Assembly (NCBI GenBank): GCA_021779695.1 | Contig: JAJYAE010000054.1 | Location: 1 to 18,150, forward strand | Direction: 5' to 3' | DNA from: Acidobacteriota bacterium | Lineage (GTDB): Bacteria > Acidobacteriota > Terriglobia > Terriglobales > Acidobacteriaceae | Length of the DNA: 18,150 bases | Shown here: piece by piece, positions 6,666-17,484 of the stretch | Layout: each line of letters starts with the position of its first letter | How positions within the stretch are numbered: position 1 is the first letter of the stretch | Position numbers and translations under genes: made by a program | Notes under the pieces: model-generated | Databases searched by the model: none | What the model saw: the letters and a program-made list of their open reading frames with translations, nothing else | What the model was told of the DNA's origin: nothing

Positions 6666-9600
6666 CTATTTCAAGGGAGTGGCTTGCTGGGAATGCCGCA
6701 AAGCCGCCTGCGCGAGCAAGCGAGCCACCTCGTGCACATTTGGTTCAAGAAGCATATTGAGGTGATTCGCAGGAACATCGCAGATATCGAGCTTGCCAAG
6801 AATAAGCTTTCCCCATCCGAGCGTGGGATCTTCAATTTCGCTCAAGCTCGTGACACCTTCATACCCACGATTTGCGGCTCGAAGGAGCATGATGCTACCT
6901 GAGTACGGCTTGAACTCATGGTGGGCAATCGCCCTCACATGCGCATCTTCGATCTGGGCATAGCGCAAATTGGCAGGCGCCTTGCCGTTTTTGTGGTTAT
7001 GGCGTGAGGCCATCAGCAACTGCGCCTGATGCACGATCTTCCTGGTCAAGTACTTCCGCTTTAGCCGCGCCTTGCGCAGAAGGTACATCGATCCGTCGCG
7101 GCGCAGATTGTCAAACAGCGCCGATACCTGGTCCCGAACGCCCAAACGCTTCGAGCTACCTGGGACAGATGCGTCCATTACCGCAACGAGAGTGGGCTCG
7201 ACGCCCTGCGCAACCAGCTCGCGCGCCATCTCGACAGCCACAAGCCCGCCATAGGAAAGCCCCCCGATCAGATACGGACCGTTCGGAAGCATTGCTCGCA
7301 TTTCTTTGACGTAGGCGGCAGCCATCTCTGTGAGGGTAACTGCGGGCCCTCCTTGATGAACGCTGAGATAAGGGCGGAAAGCGTAGACGGGCTGATCATT
7401 GCCGAGAGCACTGGCGAGAGGCTGATAGAAGAGCACTTCTCCACCCACGGCATGTACAAAGAACATGGGGACACGATTGCCACTTGGCTGAATCGGAACC
7501 AGATAAGACCATTTGGAGGGCTCAGTCCTGCTGGCGGCCAAAGCAGTGGTGACCGGCGTGGCTGAATTTGGAACTAGTTCTGCAAGTTGGCGCACTGTGC
7601 GGGCCTGAAACAGGGTGGCCAATTCCAAGTCGACCTTAAAGCGATTCTTCATCTTGGCAAAAAGCCGGATGCCGACGAGTGAGTGGCCGCCAAGGGAAAA
7701 GAAGTCGTCATCCGGGCCGACCTTTTCAACGCCGAGGAGTTCTTCAAACCAGCCTGCAATCGTGTCCTCAACAGAGGAATCCGCTGCCGGCTCCCGCGTT
7801 GAAGCAGCCGTCGCGGGTGAACTGTTTGCCTTTTCGATCTCCACTGGCTGAGCTGTCACAACCAGGTTTACGGGGGCATCGCACTGGAGGATGCGCGTCA
7901 GTATCTCCACACCGTCTGCAGCGCGGATACCGATGATCGGCGTCGCATCAAATAACTCCGCGGCGCGGCGAGTGTCGCCTGACTGAACCCAATTCGAATC
8001 CCACACTGCCTTTGAGGCCTCTTCAATGCGCCGCATGGCAAAGCCTTCAATGTCGGCGACGGTCTCTCCGGTTTGGTCGTATACAGTGATGTCGAATCGT
8101 TCGAACTCGCCGTGCACGATATTGTCCGAGTGGGGCCGAATATGGCTGAACACTCGAGGTGGAAGCGGACGAAAGAGCCGAATTTTCTTATAGGAGACTG
8201 GAAAGTAGAGTTCATTCGACCCCTGATATTGTTCTGTCAGGTAGAGCGCACATCCAGTCACCATATCCATCAACGCAGGGTGCAGATGAAGCGTTGACGT
8301 TTCCGCCGCAAAGGCTGGATCCAATTCAAGCTCCGCCCATCCTTCCCCGTCTCCAATCCCAATGGACTTGAGCGAGCGCCAGCGGGCGCCGAAGGTAAAG
8401 TAGCGCTCCTGCTCGGTCCGGTGCTGTTCGTCAAATGTGATCTGGCGCCGGCCGCAGCGAGCAGCGATGGCCTGTATATCTGCGCGAAGGTGCTCGGGTG
8501 GCCTACCAACAGCAATTCTGCCCGTGCAATGCTCTCTCCATGCTTCTCCACTCGCCACCACCGAAAAGTCAAAGGAAACCTGGGAGGCAAGGCCGACTTC
8601 GGAGCGCTTCAACTGTACACGCACTTCCCTGCTCTGATCTTTGTCAAAGGTGAGCGGCGCAAGAAAGTAGACATCCTGCAACTCGACAGGAAGCTCGATT
8701 GAACCCCTGGCGAAGGCTCCCGTCACCAGTTCAAGATATCCGGTGCCCGGCACAAGACAACGCCCTGATTTGAAGGCATGCTCAGCCACCACCCAGTTCT
8801 TCGCTCGAGACATCTCAGATGCAAACACAATGGCTTGCGGCGTATCCAGCAAGCGGCGTTCAAGCCATGGATGAGGCGAGACTGATCGCGCACCCATCCC
8901 TCCATCAATCCAAGCGCCCCAGTTGATTGCCGTGACCACGCCGCGTCGACTTGCTGCAAATGCATCGAGAAAAGCATTCGCAGCGGCGTAGTCGATTTGT
9001 CCGGCAGGAGGAAGGATCGCGCTGATGGAAGAGAAGAGAACCAAGCAATCCAGGTCCTCTGTCCGCAACGCATCCTCCAGCACGAGCGTTCCTCGCACCT
9101 TGGGATCAAGGACGCGAAGAGCGGACTCTTTGGACTTCAGCATCAACGGGCCGTCGTCCAAGACTCCTGCAGCATGAAAGACGCCATCAATCTTTCCAAA
9201 GCGTGTTTTCGCCTCGGCCACAACGCGTCGCATCTCGGTTGGGTTCAAGACGTCGGCTGTCTCCAGGAGCAATCCACCGGCAGCCTTCCGAATCGAAATC
9301 AGTCTGCGGATCCGATCCTTTTCCTGCTCAAATAAAGCAGGGTCGTCCAATGACTCTTGCCATTGCGTCTCTGCGACCACCCCTGCTCTTCCGACCAGGA
9401 TCAGGCGCGCTGCAAATGTGCGAGCCAAGTGCTCTGCCAGAGCCAGTCCAAGCGCCCCAAACCCGCCAGTGATCAGGTAAACACCGTTGTGACGTAATTT
9501 CCTTCGTTCCGTTCTGGTAGCTAAATTGAAAGGTTCAAGGGCCTCCGCGAATCGCTCGCCATTGCGATAAACTGCATTTCGTTTGTCCTCGACCAATGCC

Positions 9601-12600
9601 TCGGCGATCAGCAATCGCGCGGCTTGGGCCGCATCTCGATCCTCATGCCCCAAATCGATGGCGCGACAAGTGATTGAGGGAATTTCCCTGGTCACAACGC
9701 GCGCCGGGCCCATCAAGACGGCTCGCTCAGGATGATGGATTGCCTCGCCCCCTACCTGCTGCAAGCGATTCGAGACCAGCAAGATTTCGAGATCAGGAAT
9801 GTCGCGATTCGCAAAGGCCTGCGCCAGAAAGAGTGGCGTGAAAAAGCTGCGGTCAAGCAACTCTTCTGTCGTCACTCGGTCACTTTCGAGCAGGATCGAC
9901 CACAGGTAGAGGATTCGACACTTTTCAAACCCTGCATCGACCAAGTGATCCACCAGGCGGACAGAGTCCTCGCGGGAGCCAGGAGCCATTGTGAAATGGG
10001 CTTGCTTCGTCGAACGGAAGCCCTTCCCTATGTCAACCGTTGCAACGCGATGTCCCGCAGCAGTAAGTTGCTTCGCGACCTCATCGCTAATCTTGAGGGA
10101 GTCCCGGAAAATTACCCACGAGCCGCGTTGTGACGACTCCGCTGCGGTTGGGGGCGCCAACTTCCATGCGGATTGATAGGTCCACAGTGAACCTTCCTTT
10201 TGGGCTGGCCTTTCAGAGGCAGGAGCAGGAGACTCGAAACGAGGATCGGGCTCAATCCAGAATTTTTGATGCTCAAAAGGATAGGTTGGCAATGGAACCC
10301 GTTGAACTGAGTCAGGTGCATGCATCGCACGCCAGTCCAAGGTGGCACCAATTGCCCATATTTGTCCGGCCGTATGGAGTGCGCAGCGAAGACTCGACAT
10401 CTTTTCGCGCGGGTGCGGCAGAGTCTGAAATGCCTTTGCCCCGGCGCCACCCATCTGCCGCGCATGCGATGTCAAGACGTTGCCAGGACCAGCTTCGATG
10501 AGAAGTTGGTCAGGCGTCTTCAGCAACTCCGCAAGACAATCAGAGAAACGCACAGTGCTGCGAATGTGGCGTGCCCAGTAGGCTGGGTCAGTCGCTTCTT
10601 CCGACTTGATCCAGGATCCAGTGACATTGGACAGATAGGGAATTGCCGGTGACTTCAGAGCGGTGCGACGCACCTCGGCCTCAAATGGAGCAAGCACCGG
10701 GTCCATCATGGCGGAATGAAAAGCATGTGAGGTCAACAGGCGCCGACACTCCACCCCACGGGCCGTCATCTCCGATTCGAAGGCGGCAATTTCATCCGAA
10801 GGACCGGAAACGACGCACGTATTTGGATTATTGATGGCCGCGACTGTAACCGTACCTGCTAACTCAACCTCGCTTGCTGGAAGTTGGATCGCCAGCATGG
10901 CACCGGGGGGAAGATCGAAAATCATCCGCCCGCGCAGCGCAACCAATCGCAATGCGTCTTCCAGAGAGAAGACGCCGGCAAGGCTCGCCGCGACGTACTC
11001 ACCGATGCTGTGACCGACCATGGCAGAGGGCTGAATGCCGAGATTCTTCCACCAGCAAGCCGCAGCGTATTCCACCGCAAACAATGCAGGCTGCGTCAGC
11101 CAAGTTTCCTGAAGTCTTTGTGCTGCGGCTTCGCGCTGGTTTTCGGCTGGGTAAATTACATCCACAAGGTCGATACCGAGATATGGACGCAGAACCTCAG
11201 CGCATCTGCGAAGCGCATTCCTGAAGACCGGCTCGTGCCGATCATGGTCCAAACCCATTTCAACGTATTGCGAGCCCTGCCCCGGAAACAGGAAGGCGAC
11301 CGCGGGTGAAGTTCGGTTCGCAGTTCCGGATATCGGTGCCTTGGAAACCGGCCCGGGTGTAACTGCATATCCCTCAGAACCCGCCTCAACGACGCAAGCA
11401 CGACGATGCGAAAAGGCCTGCCGCCCGATTTGGCAAGTCCAAGCGATGTCAGCCAGATGCAAGTCTGGATGTTCATGAATATGTGCGCTGAGTCGAGTCC
11501 ATGCCTGATCCGCAGCGACTTGGGACTTGCCGGATGTCATCACCAATTCATAAGGCTTGCTCGTCCGCTGCAAGCGCCGTTCCGGCGCTTCTTCAAGGAC
11601 AAGATGCGCATTGGTGCCGCCAATGCCGAGGGCGGTCACGCCCGCTCGGCGGGGCTTGTCTTTACGGTCCCATGGCGTCAACTGACTCGCTATAAGAAAG
11701 GGACTCGCGTCGAGTTCGATATGCGGATTGATGGATTTGAAATGGAGAGTAGGAGGAATCTCAGCGTGCTCCAAGGCGAGCGCAGCCTTCATTAATCCGC
11801 CCACCCCTGCGGCTGCATCCAAATGGCCGAGATTCGATTTGAGAGATCCGAGCGCGCAGAATCGGGAACGTTGGGTCGTCCTGCGAAACGCCTGGGTCAG
11901 CGCCCGCACTTCGATCGGATCGCCCACCTTCGTCCCGGTACCATGAGCCTCGACGTAGTCAATATCGTCTGCAGAGACTCCAGAGAAATCGAGGGCTTCA
12001 GCGATGACCTCTGCCTGACCATCGACGCTGGGTGCAAGGTAGCCGACTTTGCGGCCGCCGTCGTTATTGATTGCGGACCCTAGAATTACGGCGCGAATAT
12101 GATCGCGGTCTTGAATCGCATCTTCCAGGCGCCTTAATACGACGATTCCCAGTCCGCTGGCGAAGACGGTTCCGCTGGAGGAGACGTCAAATGCCCGGCA
12201 ATGTCCATCGCGCGAAAGGATCTCGCCTTCGCGGTATAGATAGCCCAGGCCGTGCGGCACCTCAATCGTGACGCCACCCGCCAGCGCCATATCGCATTCA
12301 AAGTTCAGCAAGCTCTGGCACGCCAGATGCACCGCGACGAGCGATGTTGAACATGCGGTTTGCACGTTGATGCTCGGTCCGCGCAGATCCAACTGATAGG
12401 AGACACGTGTCGCCAGCACATCCTTGTCGTTGCCAGTCTGCTTGAGCTGGAAGAGTCCGGCAGACTCGACAAGCCGGCGATTTGCCAGGAGGTTGTGAAT
12501 CAGGTAGCTATTCAGTCCGGACCCGGCGAAGACTCCAATCGAGCCAGGAAATCGCTGGGGTGGGCACGCCGCGTCCTCCAGCGCCTCCCATGCGCACTCG

Positions 12601-12881
12601 AGGAAATGCCGGTGTTGCGGATCCATGATGGCCGCATCCCGAGGGCTGAAGCCAAAGAATGACGCATCGAAGAGAGCGACGTCATCCAAGATGGCTGCGC
12701 GCTTGACGTAATTAGCCAGAGACACTTCTTCAGGTGTCGCTCCGGCTTGCAGCAACTCTTCATCAGTCAAATCGCGAATCGATTCAACACCATTCCGAAG
12801 GTTGCGCCAGAACTCTTCGACATTGCGCGCGCCGGGAAAACGCCCAGCCATACCGACAATGGCGATCGCGGAGGATTTCAT
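6666..12881 (-). CDS. type I polyketide synthase, single module KS-AT-KR-DH-ACP-TE
   Basis: This 2071-residue protein is one complete extension and release module. KS is about 5-430 with Cys177 (TACSTS), His313 (EAHGTGT) and His353 (NLGHLDAA). AT is about 528-830 with Ser625 (GHSIGEY) and HAFH at 719-722, the malonyl-type motif. KR is about 897-1330, including its non-catalytic half: NADPH motif TGGFGALG (1138-1145), LDD (1241-1243) and K1261, S1285, Y1298, N1302, so it should be active and B-type. DH is about 1340-1620 with His1368 and Asp1539. The carrier domain is about 1703-1770, with Ser1734 in a PCP-like LGGHSL. The thioesterase is about 1795-2065, with Ser1876 (GLSYGG), Asp1903 and His2040. 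KR precedes DH, the reverse of the usual order. There is no N-terminal docking helix; the KS begins at residue 4. The ATG lies 9 bases after the NRPS stop. The KS probably accepts glycyl-PCP from that NRPS. Confidence 0.95.
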   Translation of the reverse strand: MKSSAIAIVGMAGRFPGARNVEEFWRNLRNGVESIRDLTDEELLQAGATPEEVSLANYVKRAAILDDVALFDASFFGFSPRDAAIMDPQHRHFLECAWEALEDAACPPQRFPGSIGVFAGSGLNSYLIHNLLANRRLVESAGLFQLKQTGNDKDVLATRVSYQLDLRGPSINVQTACSTSLVAVHLACQSLLNFECDMALAGGVTIEVPHGLGYLYREGEILSRDGHCRAFDVSSSGTVFASGLGIVVLRRLEDAIQDRDHIRAVILGSAINNDGGRKVGYLAPSVDGQAEVIAEALDFSGVSADDIDYVEAHGTGTKVGDPIEVRALTQAFRRTTQRSRFCALGSLKSNLGHLDAAAGVGGLMKAALALEHAEIPPTLHFKSINPHIELDASPFLIASQLTPWDRKDKPRRAGVTALGIGGTNAHLVLEEAPERRLQRTSKPYELVMTSGKSQVAADQAWTRLSAHIHEHPDLHLADIAWTCQIGRQAFSHRRACVVEAGSEGYAVTPGPVSKAPISGTANRTSPAVAFLFPGQGSQYVEMGLDHDRHEPVFRNALRRCAEVLRPYLGIDLVDVIYPAENQREAAAQRLQETWLTQPALFAVEYAAACWWKNLGIQPSAMVGHSIGEYVAASLAGVFSLEDALRLVALRGRMIFDLPPGAMLAIQLPASEVELAGTVTVAAINNPNTCVVSGPSDEIAAFESEMTARGVECRRLLTSHAFHSAMMDPVLAPFEAEVRRTALKSPAIPYLSNVTGSWIKSEEATDPAYWARHIRSTVRFSDCLAELLKTPDQLLIEAGPGNVLTSHARQMGGAGAKAFQTLPHPREKMSSLRCALHTAGQIWAIGATLDWRAMHAPDSVQRVPLPTYPFEHQKFWIEPDPRFESPAPASERPAQKEGSLWTYQSAWKLAPPTAAESSQRGSWVIFRDSLKISDEVAKQLTAAGHRVATVDIGKGFRSTKQAHFTMAPGSREDSVRLVDHLVDAGFEKCRILYLWSILLESDRVTTEELLDRSFFTPLFLAQAFANRDIPDLEILLVSNRLQQVGGEAIHHPERAVLMGPARVVTREIPSITCRAIDLGHEDRDAAQAARLLIAEALVEDKRNAVYRNGERFAEALEPFNLATRTERRKLRHNGVYLITGGFGALGLALAEHLARTFAARLILVGRAGVVAETQWQESLDDPALFEQEKDRIRRLISIRKAAGGLLLETADVLNPTEMRRVVAEAKTRFGKIDGVFHAAGVLDDGPLMLKSKESALRVLDPKVRGTLVLEDALRTEDLDCLVLFSSISAILPPAGQIDYAAANAFLDAFAASRRGVVTAINWGAWIDGGMGARSVSPHPWLERRLLDTPQAIVFASEMSRAKNWVVAEHAFKSGRCLVPGTGYLELVTGAFARGSIELPVELQDVYFLAPLTFDKDQSREVRVQLKRSEVGLASQVSFDFSVVASGEAWREHCTGRIAVGRPPEHLRADIQAIAARCGRRQITFDEQHRTEQERYFTFGARWRSLKSIGIGDGEGWAELELDPAFAAETSTLHLHPALMDMVTGCALYLTEQYQGSNELYFPVSYKKIRLFRPLPPRVFSHIRPHSDNIVHGEFERFDITVYDQTGETVADIEGFAMRRIEEASKAVWDSNWVQSGDTRRAAELFDATPIIGIRAADGVEILTRILQCDAPVNLVVTAQPVEIEKANSSPATAASTREPAADSSVEDTIAGWFEELLGVEKVGPDDDFFSLGGHSLVGIRLFAKMKNRFKVDLELATLFQARTVRQLAELVPNSATPVTTALAASRTEPSKWSYLVPIQPSGNRVPMFFVHAVGGEVLFYQPLASALGNDQPVYAFRPYLSVHQGGPAVTLTEMAAAYVKEMRAMLPNGPYLIGGLSYGGLVAVEMARELVAQGVEPTLVAVMDASVPGSSKRLGVRDQVSALFDNLRRDGSMYLLRKARLKRKYLTRKIVHQAQLLMASRHNHKNGKAPANLRYAQIEDAHVRAIAHHEFKPYSGSIMLLRAANRGYEGVTSLSEIEDPTLGWGKLILGKLDICDVPANHLNMLLEPNVHEVARLLAQAALRHSQQATPLK

Positions 12882-12890
12882 GGAATCTCT

Positions 12891-14741
12891 CTAGCGTTGG
12901 CGAGCCAGCCGACGACGCTGCGCTCGATCTGAACTTCCCCCATTCACGGCAGCCCCTTCCAGATGCGCGGCAAGCGCGTTGATCGTGGGAAACTGAAACA
13001 AATCGACAAGTGAAATCTCCCGACTTAGCTCCTCCTGCAGTCTGGAATGGACCTCTGCAACCGTCAATGAGTGTGCGCCAAGGTCGAAGAAATTCTCATC
13101 GTAAGAAAATGCGCCGACGCCGAGCGCATCCTGCCAGGTGCGTGCGACCAATTCAGCCAGTTCATGGCGCGGCTCTGTCGAATGCCCGGCGTGATCAACC
13201 GTAGCCGCCTGCGGCGGCGGCATGTTCAGCAAAGCTTTACGGTCAATTTTTCCATTGTCCGTCATTGGAAGGCGCGGCAAAAGCACGATGGCGGACGGGA
13301 CCATGAATTCCGGAAGACGCTCAGCGAGCGCAGTTCGAAGGCTGGCCCCATGGACTTGCACCGATGCCTCGGGAACGACATACGCAACGAGGCGCGGATC
13401 GCCTTCCCGGTCTTCGCGCAGAACGATAACAGCCTGACGGATTCCGGACATCTGCTCCAGCACCGCCTCTATCTCGCCGGGCTCAATGCGGTGCCCGCGC
13501 AATTTGATCTGGTAATCATTCCTTCCGAGGAAGTCCAAGCCCCCATCCGGGCGAAACCTTGCCAGGTCTCCCGTGCGGTACACACGACGCCCTTCGCAAA
13601 CGGGCGGGTTGAGAAATCGTTCCGCTGTCAACTCCGGCTGGTTTAGATATCCCCGCGCAACTCCATCTCCACCAATGAACAGTTCACCAGGCTCTCCATG
13701 CGGAACCGGCTGCAATGCAGCGTCCAAGAGATAGACCTGAGTGTTTGCAATCGGTGTTCCGATTGAAACAGTGGTTCCGGACTCTTCCACGCGGCCGCAG
13801 GTTGACCATACGGTTGTCTCTGTCGGGCCATACATGTTGAGAATCTCGCTGTGAAAGACCTGACGCAGCACTCGAATCAGGGAAGAAGGGACCGCTTCGC
13901 CACCGAGAAGCATCTTACTGAGCCCTCCAAGAGAGGCGAAAGCTCGCGTATCCAATATCATCAGCCTCGCGAGGGACGGTGTCATCTGCAGATGTGTGAC
14001 ACCGTGAAGCTGGATCTCATCTGCAACCCCGGACCAACCATCTTCACCATGCAGAACGACGGTAAAGCCACGGGTCAGCGTCCACAAGAGCTCCAGAACT
14101 GAAATGTCGAACGAGATGCTGGTAACCGCGAGCCAAACACCGGGTGATGTGCCCAGAATCTGGTCCATCGCGGCAAAGAAGTTCAGCACATTGCGATGCT
14201 CGATCATGACACCTTTGGGCTTGCCGGTGGAGCCCGACGTATAGATGACATAGGCCAGATCCGTGGAAGAGCCCCTCGCATCCATCGATTCAAGCTGCCC
14301 GCGGGGTTCATCTGCCAGGACCACGGCCGGGCCGCTCGGCAGACTCGAGAGTTGGTCTTGCGTGTGAGACGTGGCGAGCAAGACTTTCATGGCGGAGTCT
14401 TCGATGATCCACGCGAGGCGATCCTGCGGGTAGGAGGGGTCGAGTGGTACATAGGCGCCGCCCGCTTTCAGGATGCCCAGCATGGCTACCATGAGATCGA
14501 TATTCCGCTCCACAGCAAGTCCCACCAACGAACCTGGGCCTACTCCCTGCTGCTTCAAGCATGCCGCCAGCACCCCCGAACGGGCATCCAGATCCCGATA
14601 GCAGAGGCTGGTCGTACCGGCCACGACTGCGACCGCATCCGGAGTCCGCGCAGCCTGTTGAATGAAGGCTTCGGCCACTGTGGTATCGCGCGGATAGTCG
14701 ACTACCTGGCCGTATCGCTCATGCTCCGCAACGGCTGACAT
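12891..14741 (-). CDS. NRPS loading protein A-PCP, predicted glycine-specific
   Basis: The 616-residue protein has one adenylation domain (about 15-510) and one peptidyl carrier domain (about 525-595), with no condensation domain. This is the layout of a loading protein that activates an amino acid with ATP and holds it as a thioester. Motifs are A3 YTSGSTGKPKG (167-177), A4 FDISVLE (211-217), A5 MYGPTETT (303-310), A7 YRTGDLARF (from 388), A8 GRNDYQIKLRGHRIEPGEIE (406-425), A10 NGKIDRKAL (496-504, with K498), and PCP FFDLGAHSL with Ser558. Aligned by eye to GrsA, the specificity residues are D212, I213, L216, Q252, L278, G280, M303, V311, W312 and K498. This differs from the published glycine code only by L to M and I to V. 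The ATG at 14741 is chosen over the longer ORF because GGAGG lies 6 bases upstream. It overlaps the carbamoyltransferase end by 23 bases. The C-terminus is a short basic tail (RRRLARQR) that might help docking to the PKS. Confidence 0.95.
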   Translation of the reverse strand: MSAVAEHERYGQVVDYPRDTTVAEAFIQQAARTPDAVAVVAGTTSLCYRDLDARSGVLAACLKQQGVGPGSLVGLAVERNIDLMVAMLGILKAGGAYVPLDPSYPQDRLAWIIEDSAMKVLLATSHTQDQLSSLPSGPAVVLADEPRGQLESMDARGSSTDLAYVIYTSGSTGKPKGVMIEHRNVLNFFAAMDQILGTSPGVWLAVTSISFDISVLELLWTLTRGFTVVLHGEDGWSGVADEIQLHGVTHLQMTPSLARLMILDTRAFASLGGLSKMLLGGEAVPSSLIRVLRQVFHSEILNMYGPTETTVWSTCGRVEESGTTVSIGTPIANTQVYLLDAALQPVPHGEPGELFIGGDGVARGYLNQPELTAERFLNPPVCEGRRVYRTGDLARFRPDGGLDFLGRNDYQIKLRGHRIEPGEIEAVLEQMSGIRQAVIVLREDREGDPRLVAYVVPEASVQVHGASLRTALAERLPEFMVPSAIVLLPRLPMTDNGKIDRKALLNMPPPQAATVDHAGHSTEPRHELAELVARTWQDALGVGAFSYDENFFDLGAHSLTVAEVHSRLQEELSREISLVDLFQFPTINALAAHLEGAAVNGGSSDRAQRRRLARQR

Positions 14742-16479
14742 AGTAGTCCTCCAGGAACAAATCTTCGATACCGGTGCCGAGGAACGTCTCAATGGCTTCT
14801 TCTGGCGTATTCACGATGGGCTGTCCTTTAACGTTGAAACTTGTATTCAACACCATCTGGCATCCAGTTACTTCTCCGACGGCACGCAACAGCGAATGAA
14901 AATCCGGATTGTCTTCCGCCGAGACAGTCTGCAGTCTTGCCGAGCCGTTGACGTGCGTGATGGCCGGGAACGATGCGCGAAACTCCGGGCGCACATCCAC
15001 GATCGAAATCATGTAGGGCAAATCGGTATTGGGAGCGACTTCGAACCAGCGATGCGCCTCTTCAATCGCGCAGGCGGGTGCAAATGGCCGGAATGCCTCG
15101 CGCTTCTTCACCATGGCGTTGATGCGGTCACGCATCTCCGGGTGGCTAGGGTCTGCAAGAATGCTTCGTCCTCCCAGAGCCCGTGGACCATACTCCATTC
15201 TCCCGCGGAACCAGGCGATCACACGTCCCGCGGCGATCAACCGAGCCGCTGCGGCAAAAGTGGCGACTGGCGAATCCAGCTTCTTCCATTCGATTCTGCC
15301 ATCGAAATGACGAAGCGCCGCTTGAATATCAGCGTCTCCATACGCGGGTCCCAGCAGTGGAACGGGCATCCTGATCTGGGGTAATGGATCGTGCAGAGAA
15401 GCGCGATAGAGCGCCGCGCCCAGCGCCGTGCCATCATCACCCGCCACCGGCTGAATGAACACTTCATCGAATAGGCGGGACCGGACGAGCTTACCGTTTG
15501 CGGTGCAGTTCAATGCGACACCGCCGGCCAGCGCAACGCGACGCATCCCTGTCTGTCTGCCGAAATGCTCGCAGACATGCATCACGACACGCTCCAGACA
15601 TTCCTGCAGCGCGGCGGCCACATCCTCGTGCACACTATTGACGGACTGGTTCACCTGGCGGCGGGGAACCAGATTCTCGTCGAGCCAGGCTCGCGTCGCG
15701 AGATAGCTTTCCCGCTCTGCTCGCGTCTGGTTCATCTTCAGAATCGGAATTCGAATGGTTCCATCCTCGCGAAGCTCCACAATCTTCTCAAAGAATGAAC
15801 GATATCTTGCCGGATTACCATAAGGCGCTAGCCCCATGATTTTGTACTCATCGGAGTTGAAATCGAATCCCAAATGTAAGGTCACGAGCGAGTACAAAAC
15901 GCCGATCGAGTCATTCGCGCCGACCGTGCGAAGCTTCTTCAGGGTACCGTTGGTGAAGGTATAGACACTGAGACTTTCTACTTCGCCCATTGCATCGTTG
16001 ACGACCACAAGGCATTCATCCCAACCGGAAACAAAAGCCGCGCTGGCGGCGTGCGCCAGGTGGTGTCCTACCGAGACGACTCTCTCTTCCGGAAAACCGG
16101 GCAGCTCGCGTCTTACCTGCGCAATGAGGGCTTCCCGTGAAAAGACCGCCTGATACAACTCCTCAGACACAGGATCCTGCGTATAAAGGGAGCGATAGGG
16201 TGCGTAGTCGAACCCGTGCGCGATCTCGTCGATCTCGCCAATCGAGATGCCCGCCTTTTGCAAGCAGAAGTGAATTGCGTCGATTGGAAAGCTACCCGTG
16301 TGCTTCTTCCCCGAAAACCGCTCCTGTTCAGCAGCCGCGACAATTCGTCCATCTACGATCAGTGCGGCTGCAGCATCCATCCCTTGGGCAATACGGTATT
16401 CTCGCTCTTCCAGTCCAGGCCATTTTGCCATCTTGAAGGTGACGGCGTTCTCTAAGCCACTGATGCCAATAATTTTCAT
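14719..16479 (-). CDS. O-carbamoyltransferase of the NodU/CmcH/TobZ family
   Basis: Enzymes of this family use carbamoyl phosphate and ATP to form carbamoyl-adenylate and pass the carbamoyl group to a hydroxyl of a small metabolite. The product is 586 residues, a typical length. The N-terminal Kae1-like domain shows GHHLAHAASA (138-147), with the metal-binding His residues, and NDAMGE (161-166) in place of the usual DGxGE. It also has the nucleotide-binding LAGGVALNCTANGKL (317-331) and GDDGTALGA (347-355). The C-terminal domain has YGPRALGGRSILADP (430-444), KKREAFRPFAP (458-468) and LNTSFNVKGQPIVNTPEEAI (544-563). The ATG at 16479 is chosen because GGAAGG lies 6 bases upstream and MKIIGISG is a normal family start; the 55 extra codons of the longer ORF look non-coding. 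It is the first gene of the tight three-gene unit, so it probably modifies the NRPS-PKS product or a bound intermediate. The acceptor cannot be read from the sequence. Confidence 0.93.
   Translation of the reverse strand: MKIIGISGLENAVTFKMAKWPGLEEREYRIAQGMDAAAALIVDGRIVAAAEQERFSGKKHTGSFPIDAIHFCLQKAGISIGEIDEIAHGFDYAPYRSLYTQDPVSEELYQAVFSREALIAQVRRELPGFPEERVVSVGHHLAHAASAAFVSGWDECLVVVNDAMGEVESLSVYTFTNGTLKKLRTVGANDSIGVLYSLVTLHLGFDFNSDEYKIMGLAPYGNPARYRSFFEKIVELREDGTIRIPILKMNQTRAERESYLATRAWLDENLVPRRQVNQSVNSVHEDVAAALQECLERVVMHVCEHFGRQTGMRRVALAGGVALNCTANGKLVRSRLFDEVFIQPVAGDDGTALGAALYRASLHDPLPQIRMPVPLLGPAYGDADIQAALRHFDGRIEWKKLDSPVATFAAAARLIAAGRVIAWFRGRMEYGPRALGGRSILADPSHPEMRDRINAMVKKREAFRPFAPACAIEEAHRWFEVAPNTDLPYMISIVDVRPEFRASFPAITHVNGSARLQTVSAEDNPDFHSLLRAVGEVTGCQMVLNTSFNVKGQPIVNTPEEAIETFLGTGIEDLFLEDYYVSRCGA
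14748..14752 (-). promoter_or_regulatory. ribosome-binding site of the A-PCP gene, inside the carbamoyltransferase coding end
   Basis: GGAGG on the minus strand sits 6 bases upstream of the ATG at 14741 and lies within the last codons of the carbamoyltransferase gene. It fixes the NRPS start and suggests translational coupling between the two genes. Confidence 0.75.
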
Positions 16480-16485
16480 TGCTAA

Positions 16486-16491
16486 CCTTCC
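16486..16491 (-). promoter_or_regulatory. ribosome-binding site of the carbamoyltransferase gene
   Basis: GGAAGG on the minus strand lies 6 bases upstream of the ATG at 16479. It selects this start over the ORF start at 16644. Confidence 0.7.
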
Positions 16492-16564
16492 AAGGCAAAC
16501 GGGTGGAACTCTAAACCTACGCGGGCCACGAGGCGACTCGGGAAACGGAACCCAGCATAGCTCA

Positions 16565-16580
16565 AATGTAGTCTTACATT
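16565..16580. promoter_or_regulatory. 16-base inverted repeat, candidate operator upstream of the carbamoyltransferase gene
   Basis: aatgta (16565-16570), four bases, then tacatt (16575-16580) form a perfect 6+6 inverted repeat 85 bases upstream of the carbamoyltransferase ATG. It lies just upstream of a possible minus-strand -10 (TATGCT). Such AT-rich dyads are typical binding sites for small dimeric repressors, but the regulator is unknown and is not encoded in the window. Confidence 0.4.
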
Positions 16581-16612
16581 CACAGACATGCAGTGACCTT
16601 ATCACTTTCGTG

Positions 16613-16702
16613 TCATAGGCTTTCGACCGTTGCCCATGCCGCAAAGGAAAGCTCGTGCGCTTTGAATGACGATTGAACGCCCGCTCGCATGGGGCTAGCC
16701 AT
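16613..16702 (-). CDS. candidate 29-residue small ORF in the cluster leader
   Basis: ATG 16700-16702 opens a 29-codon frame ending in TGA at 16613. The product begins MASPMRAGVQSSFKAHEL and ends WATVESL. Its best evidence is an AGGAAGG Shine-Dalgarno 4 bases upstream, better than that of several real genes here. It has no homologue I recognise. It is neither strongly hydrophobic nor Cys-rich. It lies between the tandem repeat and the carbamoyltransferase start, so it could be a leader peptide or a small protein made with the cluster. Chance is a serious alternative at this length. Confidence 0.3.
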   Translation of the reverse strand: MASPMRAGVQSSFKAHELSFAAWATVESL

Positions 16703-16750
16703 TTTGCCTTCCTCTCCGAGGCTCCAAAATCTCCTTCAAACCTCAGATGC

Positions 16751-16778
16751 TGCGAGTCCTACTATGCGAGTCCTACTA
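16751..16778. repeat. perfect 14-base tandem direct repeat in the cluster leader
   Basis: The unit tgcgagtcctacta occurs at 16751-16764 and again, without a gap or mismatch, at 16765-16778. The 14-base period is not a whole number of helical turns. It could be a pair of regulator half-sites or a recent slippage duplication. It lies 49 bases upstream of the small ORF and about 270 bases upstream of the carbamoyltransferase. Confidence 0.8.
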
Positions 16779-16866
16779 AAATTCAGATTCGACGGATCAA
16801 GTAACTACGCGCCGCTTGCCGCAGTGGCTGAAGGAAGCCCTTTGCAGATCTGCCGAGTCCTTTGAC

Positions 16867-17484
16867 CTATTTTTCTTGCCGCTTGCGTTCTTTCACCTTC
16901 GTGGCCGGAATGCCGGCATATACTCCCCATGCCTCCAGATCACGGGTTGCGACCGACGCGAGTCCCAGCACCGCACCCTCCCCAACATTGACTCCTGGAC
17001 TCACACACGCCCTTGCGCAGATCCAAGCATAGGCCCCAACATCCATCGAGTATGCCAGCAGTGGAAACGCGGGGTCATCAAAATCATGTGTCGCCCCACA
17101 GAGATACGCGCCTTGCGACACGATGGCGTGGCTGCCGAGTCGCATTGGAGCGGGATTGTAGATTTCAGCACCATCTCCTGCCGTCACCTGATCAGCGCAG
17201 ATGAGATTCCAGGGAGCCCAAACCCGAGATCCGGGATAGAAATGGCAATTTGGCCCCATTTGCGCACCAAAGAGCCGGAGCAGCATCGTGCGCCAACCGT
17301 GCATGGGACGTGGGGAGATTCGATAGAGCAATAACCAGGCCACGTTCCAGACCAAGCGGAGAAGGCGATTCATTCGTGAAAACGCCGGTCTTAGATACGG
17401 ATCCTTTGCCGTCTCAGGAGAGATGTGATGTGCGGCATGATATTGCAATTGCTTCGCCATGATCCTGATCGCACTCCCATTCAT
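16867..17484 (-). CDS. WcaF-like acyltransferase with left-handed beta-helix
   Basis: The protein resembles the putative colanic-acid acetyltransferase WcaF family (CysE/LacA/NodL superfamily), which transfers acetyl or other acyl groups from CoA to hydroxyls. From ATG 17484 it has 205 residues. The N-terminal part shows the family signature DPYLRPAFSRMNRLLRLVWN and a hydrophobic stretch WNVAWLLLYRIS (about 46-57) that may touch the membrane, then WRTMLLRLFGA. Hexapeptide repeats follow (IVSQGAYLC, PGVNVGEGAVLGLASVATRD). The likely catalytic His is H133 in GATHDF. Start choice is uncertain: GTG 17526 has no ribosome-binding site, ATG 17484 has a weak AAGAAG, and ATG 17460 is equally compatible with homologue length. 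The family usually acts in exopolysaccharide loci, but no glycosyltransferase is nearby. It lies upstream of the carbamoyltransferase in the same direction, so a tailoring role is possible but unproven. Confidence 0.88.
   Translation of the reverse strand: MNGSAIRIMAKQLQYHAAHHISPETAKDPYLRPAFSRMNRLLRLVWNVAWLLLYRISPRPMHGWRTMLLRLFGAQMGPNCHFYPGSRVWAPWNLICADQVTAGDGAEIYNPAPMRLGSHAIVSQGAYLCGATHDFDDPAFPLLAYSMDVGAYAWICARACVSPGVNVGEGAVLGLASVATRDLEAWGVYAGIPATKVKERKRQEK

What the first reader, a model, noticed from the sequence alone, without database searches (positions are those of the whole stretch)
6666..17484. Minimal glycine-plus-one-malonate assembly line with a built-in carbamoyltransferase
Seen: carbamoyltransferase, A-PCP and KS-AT-KR-DH-ACP-TE genes in one direction, overlapping or 9 bases apart, with all key catalytic residues of KS, AT, KR, carrier and TE present. 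Known: an A-PCP loader can hand an aminoacyl group directly to a hybrid KS, and the HAFH motif marks malonyl-specific ATs. Inference: the line makes a four-carbon amino acid, either 4-amino-3-hydroxybutanoate or 4-aminocrotonate (GABA analogues), or their five-membered lactams, carrying a carbamate. I know of no characterised cluster with this exact gene set.
Basis: partly seen in the sequence, partly recalled or inferred. Interest (0 to 1): 0.82.

Follow-up and report, generated by a model that had tools for sequence, protein, structure and literature searches.

The report
Conserved glycine–malonate–carbamoyl assembly cassette
Soil acidobacteria carry a compact three-gene enzyme line that most likely joins glycine to one two-carbon unit and adds a carbamoyl group; the product is unknown, but the genes recur together as a unit in related species.

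Summary
In detail: a carbamoyltransferase (CarbT), an A-PCP and a KS-AT-KR-DH-ACP-TE synthase lie on the minus strand, overlapping or 9 bases apart, with catalytic residues present. It is not unique: 20 other loci carry the three genes in the same order. In 300 genomes of one family the synthase occurs in 12, CarbT in 14, both in 11; the exception is a truncated remnant. Flanks differ, so it is an autonomous cassette; a PPTase is the one neighbour that often recurs. The A-domain code is glycine-type: 12 of 21 loci have a published Gly code exactly, the others near variants. A sister clade of the synthase in Alphaproteobacteria also pairs with a Gly-type A-PCP, but there the loader carries an N-formyltransferase and a monooxygenase, and no CarbT was found nearby (0 of 10). 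I therefore favour CarbT capping the glycyl amine over an O-carbamate; the invariant DH dyad also argues against a surviving hydroxyl. Product, carbamoyl position and single use of the module are unproven. Ten searches of an open-access paper library showed no characterised counterpart. The WcaF-like gene in the finding's span is not part of the cassette.

The parts
14719..16479 (-). carbamoyltransferase (CarbT; open frame runs to TTG 16644, likely start ATG 16479)
   Evidence: Pfam Carbam_trans_N/C; PDB relatives NovN, GdmN, TobZ; homologue lengths; ATG
12891..14741 (-). A-PCP loading protein, glycine-type code DILQLGMVWK (likely start ATG 14741; open frame to TTG 14792)
   Evidence: Pfam; code; Gly assignment of the near-identical DILQLGMIWK; start
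13248..14660 (-). adenylation domain with AMP-binding_C
   Evidence: residues 45-515 of the TTG frame
12960..13151 (-). peptidyl carrier domain
   Evidence: residues 548-611
6666..12881 (-). type I PKS, order KS-AT-KR-DH-ACP-TE, 2071 aa
11592..12869 (-). KS domain (Cys177, His313, His353)
10446..11294 (-). AT domain (GHSIG, HAFH malonyl-type motif)
8907..10115 (-). structural plus catalytic KR (LDD, Ser1285, Tyr1298, Asn1302)
8013..8873 (-). DH domain (His1368, Asp1539; Gly in place of Gln/His at Asp+4)
7572..7754 (-). ACP (Ser1734)
6720..7469 (-). TE (Ser1876, Asp1903, His2040)
16867..17484 (-). WcaF-like hexapeptide acetyltransferase; neighbour, not part of the conserved cassette
   Evidence: best NCBIfam hit WcaF family, below its cut-off; seen only in the closest relatives

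Best explanation
A self-contained assembly line. The A-PCP activates glycine and carries it as a thioester. The carbamoyltransferase most likely caps the PCP-bound glycyl amine, giving an N-carbamoylglycyl (ureidoacetyl) starter. The KS condenses this with one malonate, the B-type KR reduces the ketone, the DH dehydrates, and the TE releases a carbamoylated four-carbon amino acid such as 4-ureidocrotonate, or a cyclic form of it. In longer variants a C-A-PCP unit adds one more amino acid before the TE. Shown by sequence: gene order, domains, active sites, glycine-type code, conservation as a unit. Inferred: substrate hand-over, single elongation, active DH, N position of the carbamoyl group, product. 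My odds: 0.65 for 'Gly plus one malonate plus carbamoyl'; 0.5 if the DH must also act (the confidence given below); about 0.33 with the carbamoyl on nitrogen.
For: Unbiased linkage: in 300 genomes of one family, synthase in 12, CarbT in 14, both in 11 (chance of at least 11: 1e-16); in 10 of the 11 the two matches lie 5.9-6.4 kb apart on one contig, and the eleventh is split between two contig ends. Order and strand kept in 20 loci plus the window (these loci were fetched with CarbT, so CarbT's presence there is by construction). Distances of the three proteins correlate at r 0.92-0.96 over 20 loci including the window. Gly-type code. Active sites. A-PCP fused to KS beside CarbT in B. glumae, A code DIAQVGVVWK. 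Alphaproteobacterial sister clade (KS tree of 43 sequences, joint clade support 0.94), fetched by the synthase: Gly-type loader with a formyltransferase domain in 9 of 10 loci, CarbT in 0 of 10; no formyltransferase in the flanks held of the 21 acidobacterial loci. In 31 of 57 non-cassette CarbT loci an A-domain gene of one other code lies near, in 22 of these 31 with a small carrier ORF within 1.5 kb.
Against: The solved relatives (NovN, GdmN, TobZ) and NodU are O-carbamoyltransferases (substrates recalled), so N-carbamoylation would be unusual. The DH lacks the usual Gln/His at Asp+4 (Gly in 136 of 141), so it may be weak and a hydroxyl could survive. The formyl domain of the alphaproteobacterial loaders comes with a monooxygenase that the cassette lacks, and their AT motif differs, so the comparison is not one for one. 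Several of the 10 alphaproteobacterial records are close kin (three Paracoccus, two Ruegeria, two Aminobacter). L014 has a 73% CarbT without A-PCP or synthase in the 10 kb downstream; G596 also has CarbT without them on a 12.6 kb contig.
Confidence: 0.5

Rival explanations
1. O-carbamate route: KR forms the 3-hydroxyl, the DH is inactive or by-passed, and CarbT carbamoylates that hydroxyl on the ACP or after release, giving 3-O-carbamoyl-4-amino-3-hydroxybutanoate or its lactam.
For: The solved relatives of this CarbT act on hydroxyls (chemistry recalled). DH has Gly at Asp+4 in 136 of 141 sequences, whereas CurF keeps Gln there in the alignment.
Against: DH His and Asp are kept in 141 of 141 synthases, which is hard to explain if dehydration is not needed. 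The amine would stay free and could attack the thioester.
Confidence: 0.3
2. Iterative use: the single KS-AT-KR-DH-ACP module acts several times and makes a glycine-primed polyene acid.
For: Single KR-DH module with its own TE and no other module in the cassette; iterative reducing type I PKSs exist (recalled).
Against: The related bimodular protein P0012 has a KR-DH module as one of two modules. Longer variants add a C-A-PCP to the same chain, typical of modular logic. Neither excludes iteration here.
Confidence: 0.12
3. The product is not a free small molecule but an acyl group passed on to a glycan (compatible with either carbamoyl position).
For: 7 of the 10 alphaproteobacterial loci looked at lie among exopolysaccharide, exosortase or glycosyltransferase genes (Ruegeria, Paracoccus, Parasedimentitalea, Tateyamaria), and a GT2 gene lies between synthase and loader in five. 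L043, a CarbT relative outside the cassette, sits among glycosyltransferases. The window has a WcaF-like neighbour.
Against: Beside the acidobacterial cassette only the PPTase family recurs often: 10 of 21 loci, every other flanking family in at most 3. A TE ends the line. The two Aminobacter loci show only a nearby glycosyltransferase.
Confidence: 0.2

Closest known systems
Alphaproteobacterial formyltransferase-A(LLM)-PCP plus KS-AT-KR-DH-ACP-TE pairs (annotated MupA/Atu3671 family LLM and type I PKS; Ruegeria, Paracoccus, Aminobacter, Shinella, Parasedimentitalea)
   Same: same synthase order; same extra residue in the DH motif, DxATG motif and Gly-type A code in the three pairs read; sister KS clade
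   Different: formyltransferase and inserted monooxygenase on the loader (Pfam of one; phmmer in 9 of 10 loci), no CarbT found, AT motif DIAAHS instead of SHAFHS. I know of no characterised product
Burkholderia glumae plasmid cluster (CP045091, L118)
   Same: CarbT (45.6%) directly upstream of a Gly-like A-PCP followed by KS-AT with DH and KR
   Different: A-PCP fused to the KS, DH before KR, followed by a further PKS gene, with tailoring genes upstream; KS outside the cassette clade
LgrA (linear gramicidin) and the solved A-domain protein 5u89
   Same: LgrA has the highest summed score to the A-PCP (two stretches, best 376.5 bits) and 5u89 the highest single stretch shown (454 bits). LgrA starts with an N-formylated amino acid on a carrier, and 5u89 is, as I recall, the glycine module of DhbF
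   Different: LgrA: formyl not carbamoyl, peptide not polyketide extension; 5u89: peptide line
NovN, GdmN, TobZ carbamoyltransferases
   Same: same family, 274-379 bits
   Different: they tailor antibiotics at hydroxyls (recalled); this one is in an operon with a loader and a synthase

Membership tests
NRPS-PKS hybrid assembly line | A-PCP loader with adenylation and carrier domains | tested here: met
   Pfam A, A_C, PP-binding; 10-residue code read in all 21 cassette loci
NRPS-PKS hybrid assembly line | complete PKS module with catalytic residues | tested here: met
   of 141: KS Cys/His/His 140 each, AT Ser 139 (rest gaps), KR Ser/Tyr/Asn 141/141/140, DH His/Asp 141/141, ACP Ser 141, TE Ser/Asp/His 141/141/140
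NRPS-PKS hybrid assembly line | transfer of the aminoacyl group from PCP to KS | not testable with these tools
   only indirect: A-PCP fused to KS in L118
Carbamoyltransferase (NodU/TobZ type) | Carbam_trans_N and Carbam_trans_C domains | tested here: met
   above gathering scores
Carbamoyltransferase (NodU/TobZ type) | acts on a hydroxyl | not testable with these tools
   needs an assay
NodU (NCBIfam equivalog NF041651) | score above curated cut-off | tested here: not met
   162 bits against a cut-off of 1000
Glycine-activating A domain | published Gly code | tested here: met
   DILQLGMIWK in 12 of 21 cassette loci; the window and 8 others differ at one or two positions; named Gly-activating in PMC12283262 (passage). 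The window's own code differs by Ile to Val at one position
PKS dehydratase | catalytic His and Asp | tested here: met
   141 of 141
PKS dehydratase | Gln/His at Asp+4 (motif recalled; Gln in CurF) | tested here: not met
   Gly in 136 of 141, window included

The most novel reading that the evidence does not exclude
A carbamoyltransferase of the NodU/TobZ family works at the start of an assembly line. It N-carbamoylates PCP-bound glycine to make a ureidoacetyl starter for a polyketide synthase, in place of the N-formyl cap of the sister lines of Alphaproteobacteria. After dehydration the ureido nitrogen may close on the enoyl carbon, giving a cyclic urea (2-oxoimidazolidine-4-acetate).
Probability: 0.3. 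Interest if true: 0.75.

Novelty: new variant of a known kind. Interest (0 to 1): 0.58.

Why it matters
It is a very small, recurrent and apparently uncharacterised hybrid line in a major soil phylum, small enough to rebuild in a laboratory strain with three genes and a PPTase. It makes a clear question testable: does a carbamoyltransferase act on a carrier-bound amine as a starter cap? The sister clade suggests that formyl and carbamoyl caps have been exchanged on one glycine-primed synthase family.

Tried and rejected
Own genome: none is held, so genome-wide context of the window strain could not be read. Viral contigs: no relative. Paper searches: 22, 23, 43, 44 and 54 returned nothing; one returned one unrelated paper; one gave the Gly-code paper; the listings of 53, 61 and 62 showed no title or abstract start describing such a cluster, and most of those papers I did not open. 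In PMC12283262, PMC7298704 and PMC11245096 I saw passages only; 'carbamoyl' occurs 0 times in the main text of the last two. antiSMASH and MIBiG were not available.

Rejected: the WcaF-like gene and serB as cassette parts (only in the closest relatives); the upstream 1,453-aa protein of L003 as an assembly-line part (outer membrane beta-barrel); the second carbamoyltransferase group as the same system (different A code, no synthase).

Own errors: the label 'C' stands for KS, because the piece taken from P0013 was its KS; later calls use a real C domain.

Full report
WHAT IS THERE. All core genes are on the minus strand. The synthase (6666-12881) carries, in this order, KS, AT, KR (with its structural half), DH, ACP and TE. 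Nine bases upstream ends an A-PCP gene, which overlaps the end of a carbamoyltransferase gene. Outside this set lie serB, an acetyl-CoA synthetase, an outer membrane barrel and dxs on one side, and a WcaF-like acetyltransferase and a class II aldolase on the other. Pfam shows no condensation domain in the ten window proteins scanned, and ARAGORN no tRNA gene.

IT RECURS. A search of the genome collection with a CarbT alignment gave 80 loci, the cap; 85 stretches had matched. Of the 80, 20 carry CarbT, A-PCP and the synthase in the same order and strand; with the window that makes 21. In L015 the synthase is split over two open frames. Of the 21 loci matched at 68% or more (L001-L018, L036, L063, L066), 18 have all three genes, L005 and L013 run off the contig within the A domain, and L014 has CarbT but no A-PCP or synthase in the 10 kb downstream; the other two full cassettes are L030 and L054, at 62-63%. 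Because the loci were fetched with CarbT, CarbT's presence in them is by construction. One neighbour family, a PPTase, recurs in 10 of 21 loci; the member tested is closest to HetI, below that model's cut-off. Every other flanking family occurs in at most 3 of 21; flanks held differ in length, so these are lower bounds. The cassette appears autonomous.

HOW COMMON. In 300 genomes drawn from one family, the synthase (DH-ACP-TE query, E up to 1e-60) is in 12 and CarbT (E up to 1e-150) in 14, with 11 shared; the chance of at least 11 shared is 1e-16. These searches score at most three or four candidates a genome, so misses are possible. In 10 of the 11 the two matches lie on one contig, 5.9-6.4 kb apart; in G575 they sit at the ends of two contigs. 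G606, synthase without CarbT, keeps only a 689-residue 3' part of the synthase next to serB and acs, as in the window, so it is a truncated cassette or an assembly fault. CarbT without synthase: G557 (the 5 kb contig ends just after the gene), G596 (12.6 kb contig, none found) and G601 (partial CarbT). In 399 genomes of the class, 19 have a CarbT hit (E up to 1e-150) and 7 of those 19 loci show an A domain directly downstream; the loci reach only about 1.5 kb beyond CarbT. So the cassette is sporadic, about 4% of that family's sample, but tightly linked. Pairwise distances of the three proteins correlate at 0.92-0.96 over 20 loci, the window included and L015 left out; CarbT is the most conserved (median identity 75%, against 59% for A-PCP and 56% for the synthase).

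SUBSTRATES. The A code in the window is DILQLGMVWK. Of 21 cassette loci, 12 read DILQLGMIWK, 3 DILQFGMIWK, 3 DILQLGMVWK (window included), and one each DILQMGMIWK, DIMQLGMVWK and DILQLGVIWK. PMC12283262 reports four Gly-activating domains with a monooxygenase that share DILQLGMIWK (passages seen). The AT has the malonyl-type HAFH motif, each position kept in 138 or 139 of 141. The KR has the LDD motif of B-type reductases (Asp1242: Asp in 118, Glu in 17; Asp1243: 138 of 141); the stereochemical meaning is recalled. DH His and Asp are invariant in the 141 synthases (139 distinct), but the residue at Asp+4 is Gly in 136; the best-scoring solved DH is CurF. One extra residue lies between the DH His and the Pro of its motif, compared with P0012.

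LONGER VARIANTS. Of the 10 proteins above 3,000 aa among the 120 best hits, 9 read KS-AT-KR-DH-ACP-C-A-PCP-TE. Their second A code is DVWHFSLVDK in 5 (Ser-like, recalled), DILQ-GLIWK in 2 (Gly-like, one position not aligned) and DI[AM]Q-TLIWK in 2 (undetermined). G131 shows such a variant together with CarbT, A-PCP and a PPTase. The four tested (P0013, P0014, P0015 and G131's, L128) branch inside the cassette clade in a KS tree of 43 sequences. For G131 at least, CarbT is thus kept when a residue is added, which fits a CarbT that serves the glycine-malonate part.

SISTER CLADE. In the plasmid collection 55 records match the synthase's DH-ACP-TE part; 12 were listed and I looked at 10 of these 12, leaving out H17 and H19. 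Three are Paracoccus, two Ruegeria and two Aminobacter, so they are not independent. Pfam of the one Ruegeria pair tested shows the same synthase order and a loader made of formyltransferase, A with an inserted luciferase-like monooxygenase, and PCP. Codes of three such loaders are DILQMGMIWK, DILQLGMIWK and DILQAGMIWK. Formyltransferase and monooxygenase occur in 9 of 10 loci; the tenth, L136, is cut by the record end, and in L132 the loader gene is broken into pieces. CarbT was found in none of the 10, and neither formyltransferase nor monooxygenase in the flanks held of the 21 acidobacterial loci. The fair contrast is between searches with the synthase: CarbT in 11 of 12 acidobacterial genomes against 0 of 10 alphaproteobacterial loci. 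KS sequences of the two groups form one clade with support 0.94, leaving out P0012, the B. glumae KSs and the second L054 synthase. Seven of the 10 loci lie among exopolysaccharide, exosortase or glycosyltransferase genes; the two Aminobacter loci do not clearly, and the Shinella record has no annotation. Their AT motif DIAAHS (three read) differs from SHAFHS, so their extender may differ.

FUSION EVIDENCE. On a B. glumae plasmid a CarbT (45.6% identical) precedes a gene reading A-PCP-KS-AT-DH-KR, with A code DIAQVGVVWK. This supports direct hand-over from a Gly-type PCP to a KS, and a link between CarbT and a glycine starter. This KS is outside the cassette clade, so the likeness is one of logic, not of close descent. 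Among 57 CarbT loci without the synthase, 31 hold an A-domain gene of one other, unassigned code, DL[FSHLM]F[LIV]C[LIV]IAK; 22 of these 31 have a small carrier ORF within 1.5 kb, and a monooxygenase family is in 20 of the 57, 19 of them in the 31.

MECHANISM. The simplest reading that uses every conserved residue is: glycine loading, carbamoyl cap on the amine, one malonate, ketoreduction, dehydration, release. The cap would stop the amine from attacking the thioester, as the formyl group may do in the sister lines. The rival, an O-carbamate on the KR-made hydroxyl, fits the habit of the enzyme family but leaves the invariant DH dyad unexplained. The evidence does not settle this.

NOVELTY. 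Each enzyme family is known; the set and its spread did not show up in ten searches of an open-access library. Most subscription journals are not held there, and MIBiG was not searched. I file it as a new variant of NRPS-PKS hybrid lines.

Noticed in passing
L019-L077, non-cassette CarbT loci (for example L043:7079-11791): A second CarbT group in several phyla (Bradyrhizobium, Nitrospira, Gemmatimonadetes, Acidobacteria and others): 31 of 57 loci hold a free A-domain gene with an almost constant, unassigned code DL[FSHLM]F[LIV]C[LIV]IAK, 22 of the 31 a small carrier ORF close by, and 20 of the 57 a luciferase-like monooxygenase. Five spellings of the code gave no paper.
   Followed up: partly
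L120, L121, L122, L123, L131-L136: Formyltransferase-A(LLM)-PCP plus KS-AT-KR-DH-ACP-TE pairs on plasmids of Alphaproteobacteria, seven of ten among exopolysaccharide, exosortase or glycosyltransferase genes; perhaps a glycan-linked hybrid line.
   Followed up: partly
L124:5933-8002: Truncated synthase remnant in the same acs-serB setting as the window: cassette loss or an assembly fault.
   Followed up: partly
L054:1-8617: A second, divergently placed A-PCP (code DAFWLGGTFK) and a long PKS/NRPS frame beside a cassette of the usual kind.
   Followed up: no
L118:9495-29752: B. glumae plasmid cluster with CarbT, a gene annotated bioB, oxidoreductases and an A-PCP-fused PKS; its product is unknown to me.
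   Followed up: no
L132:13139-17415: The loader gene of a Paracoccus marcusii pair is broken into many short open frames, while two other Paracoccus records keep it whole.
   Followed up: no
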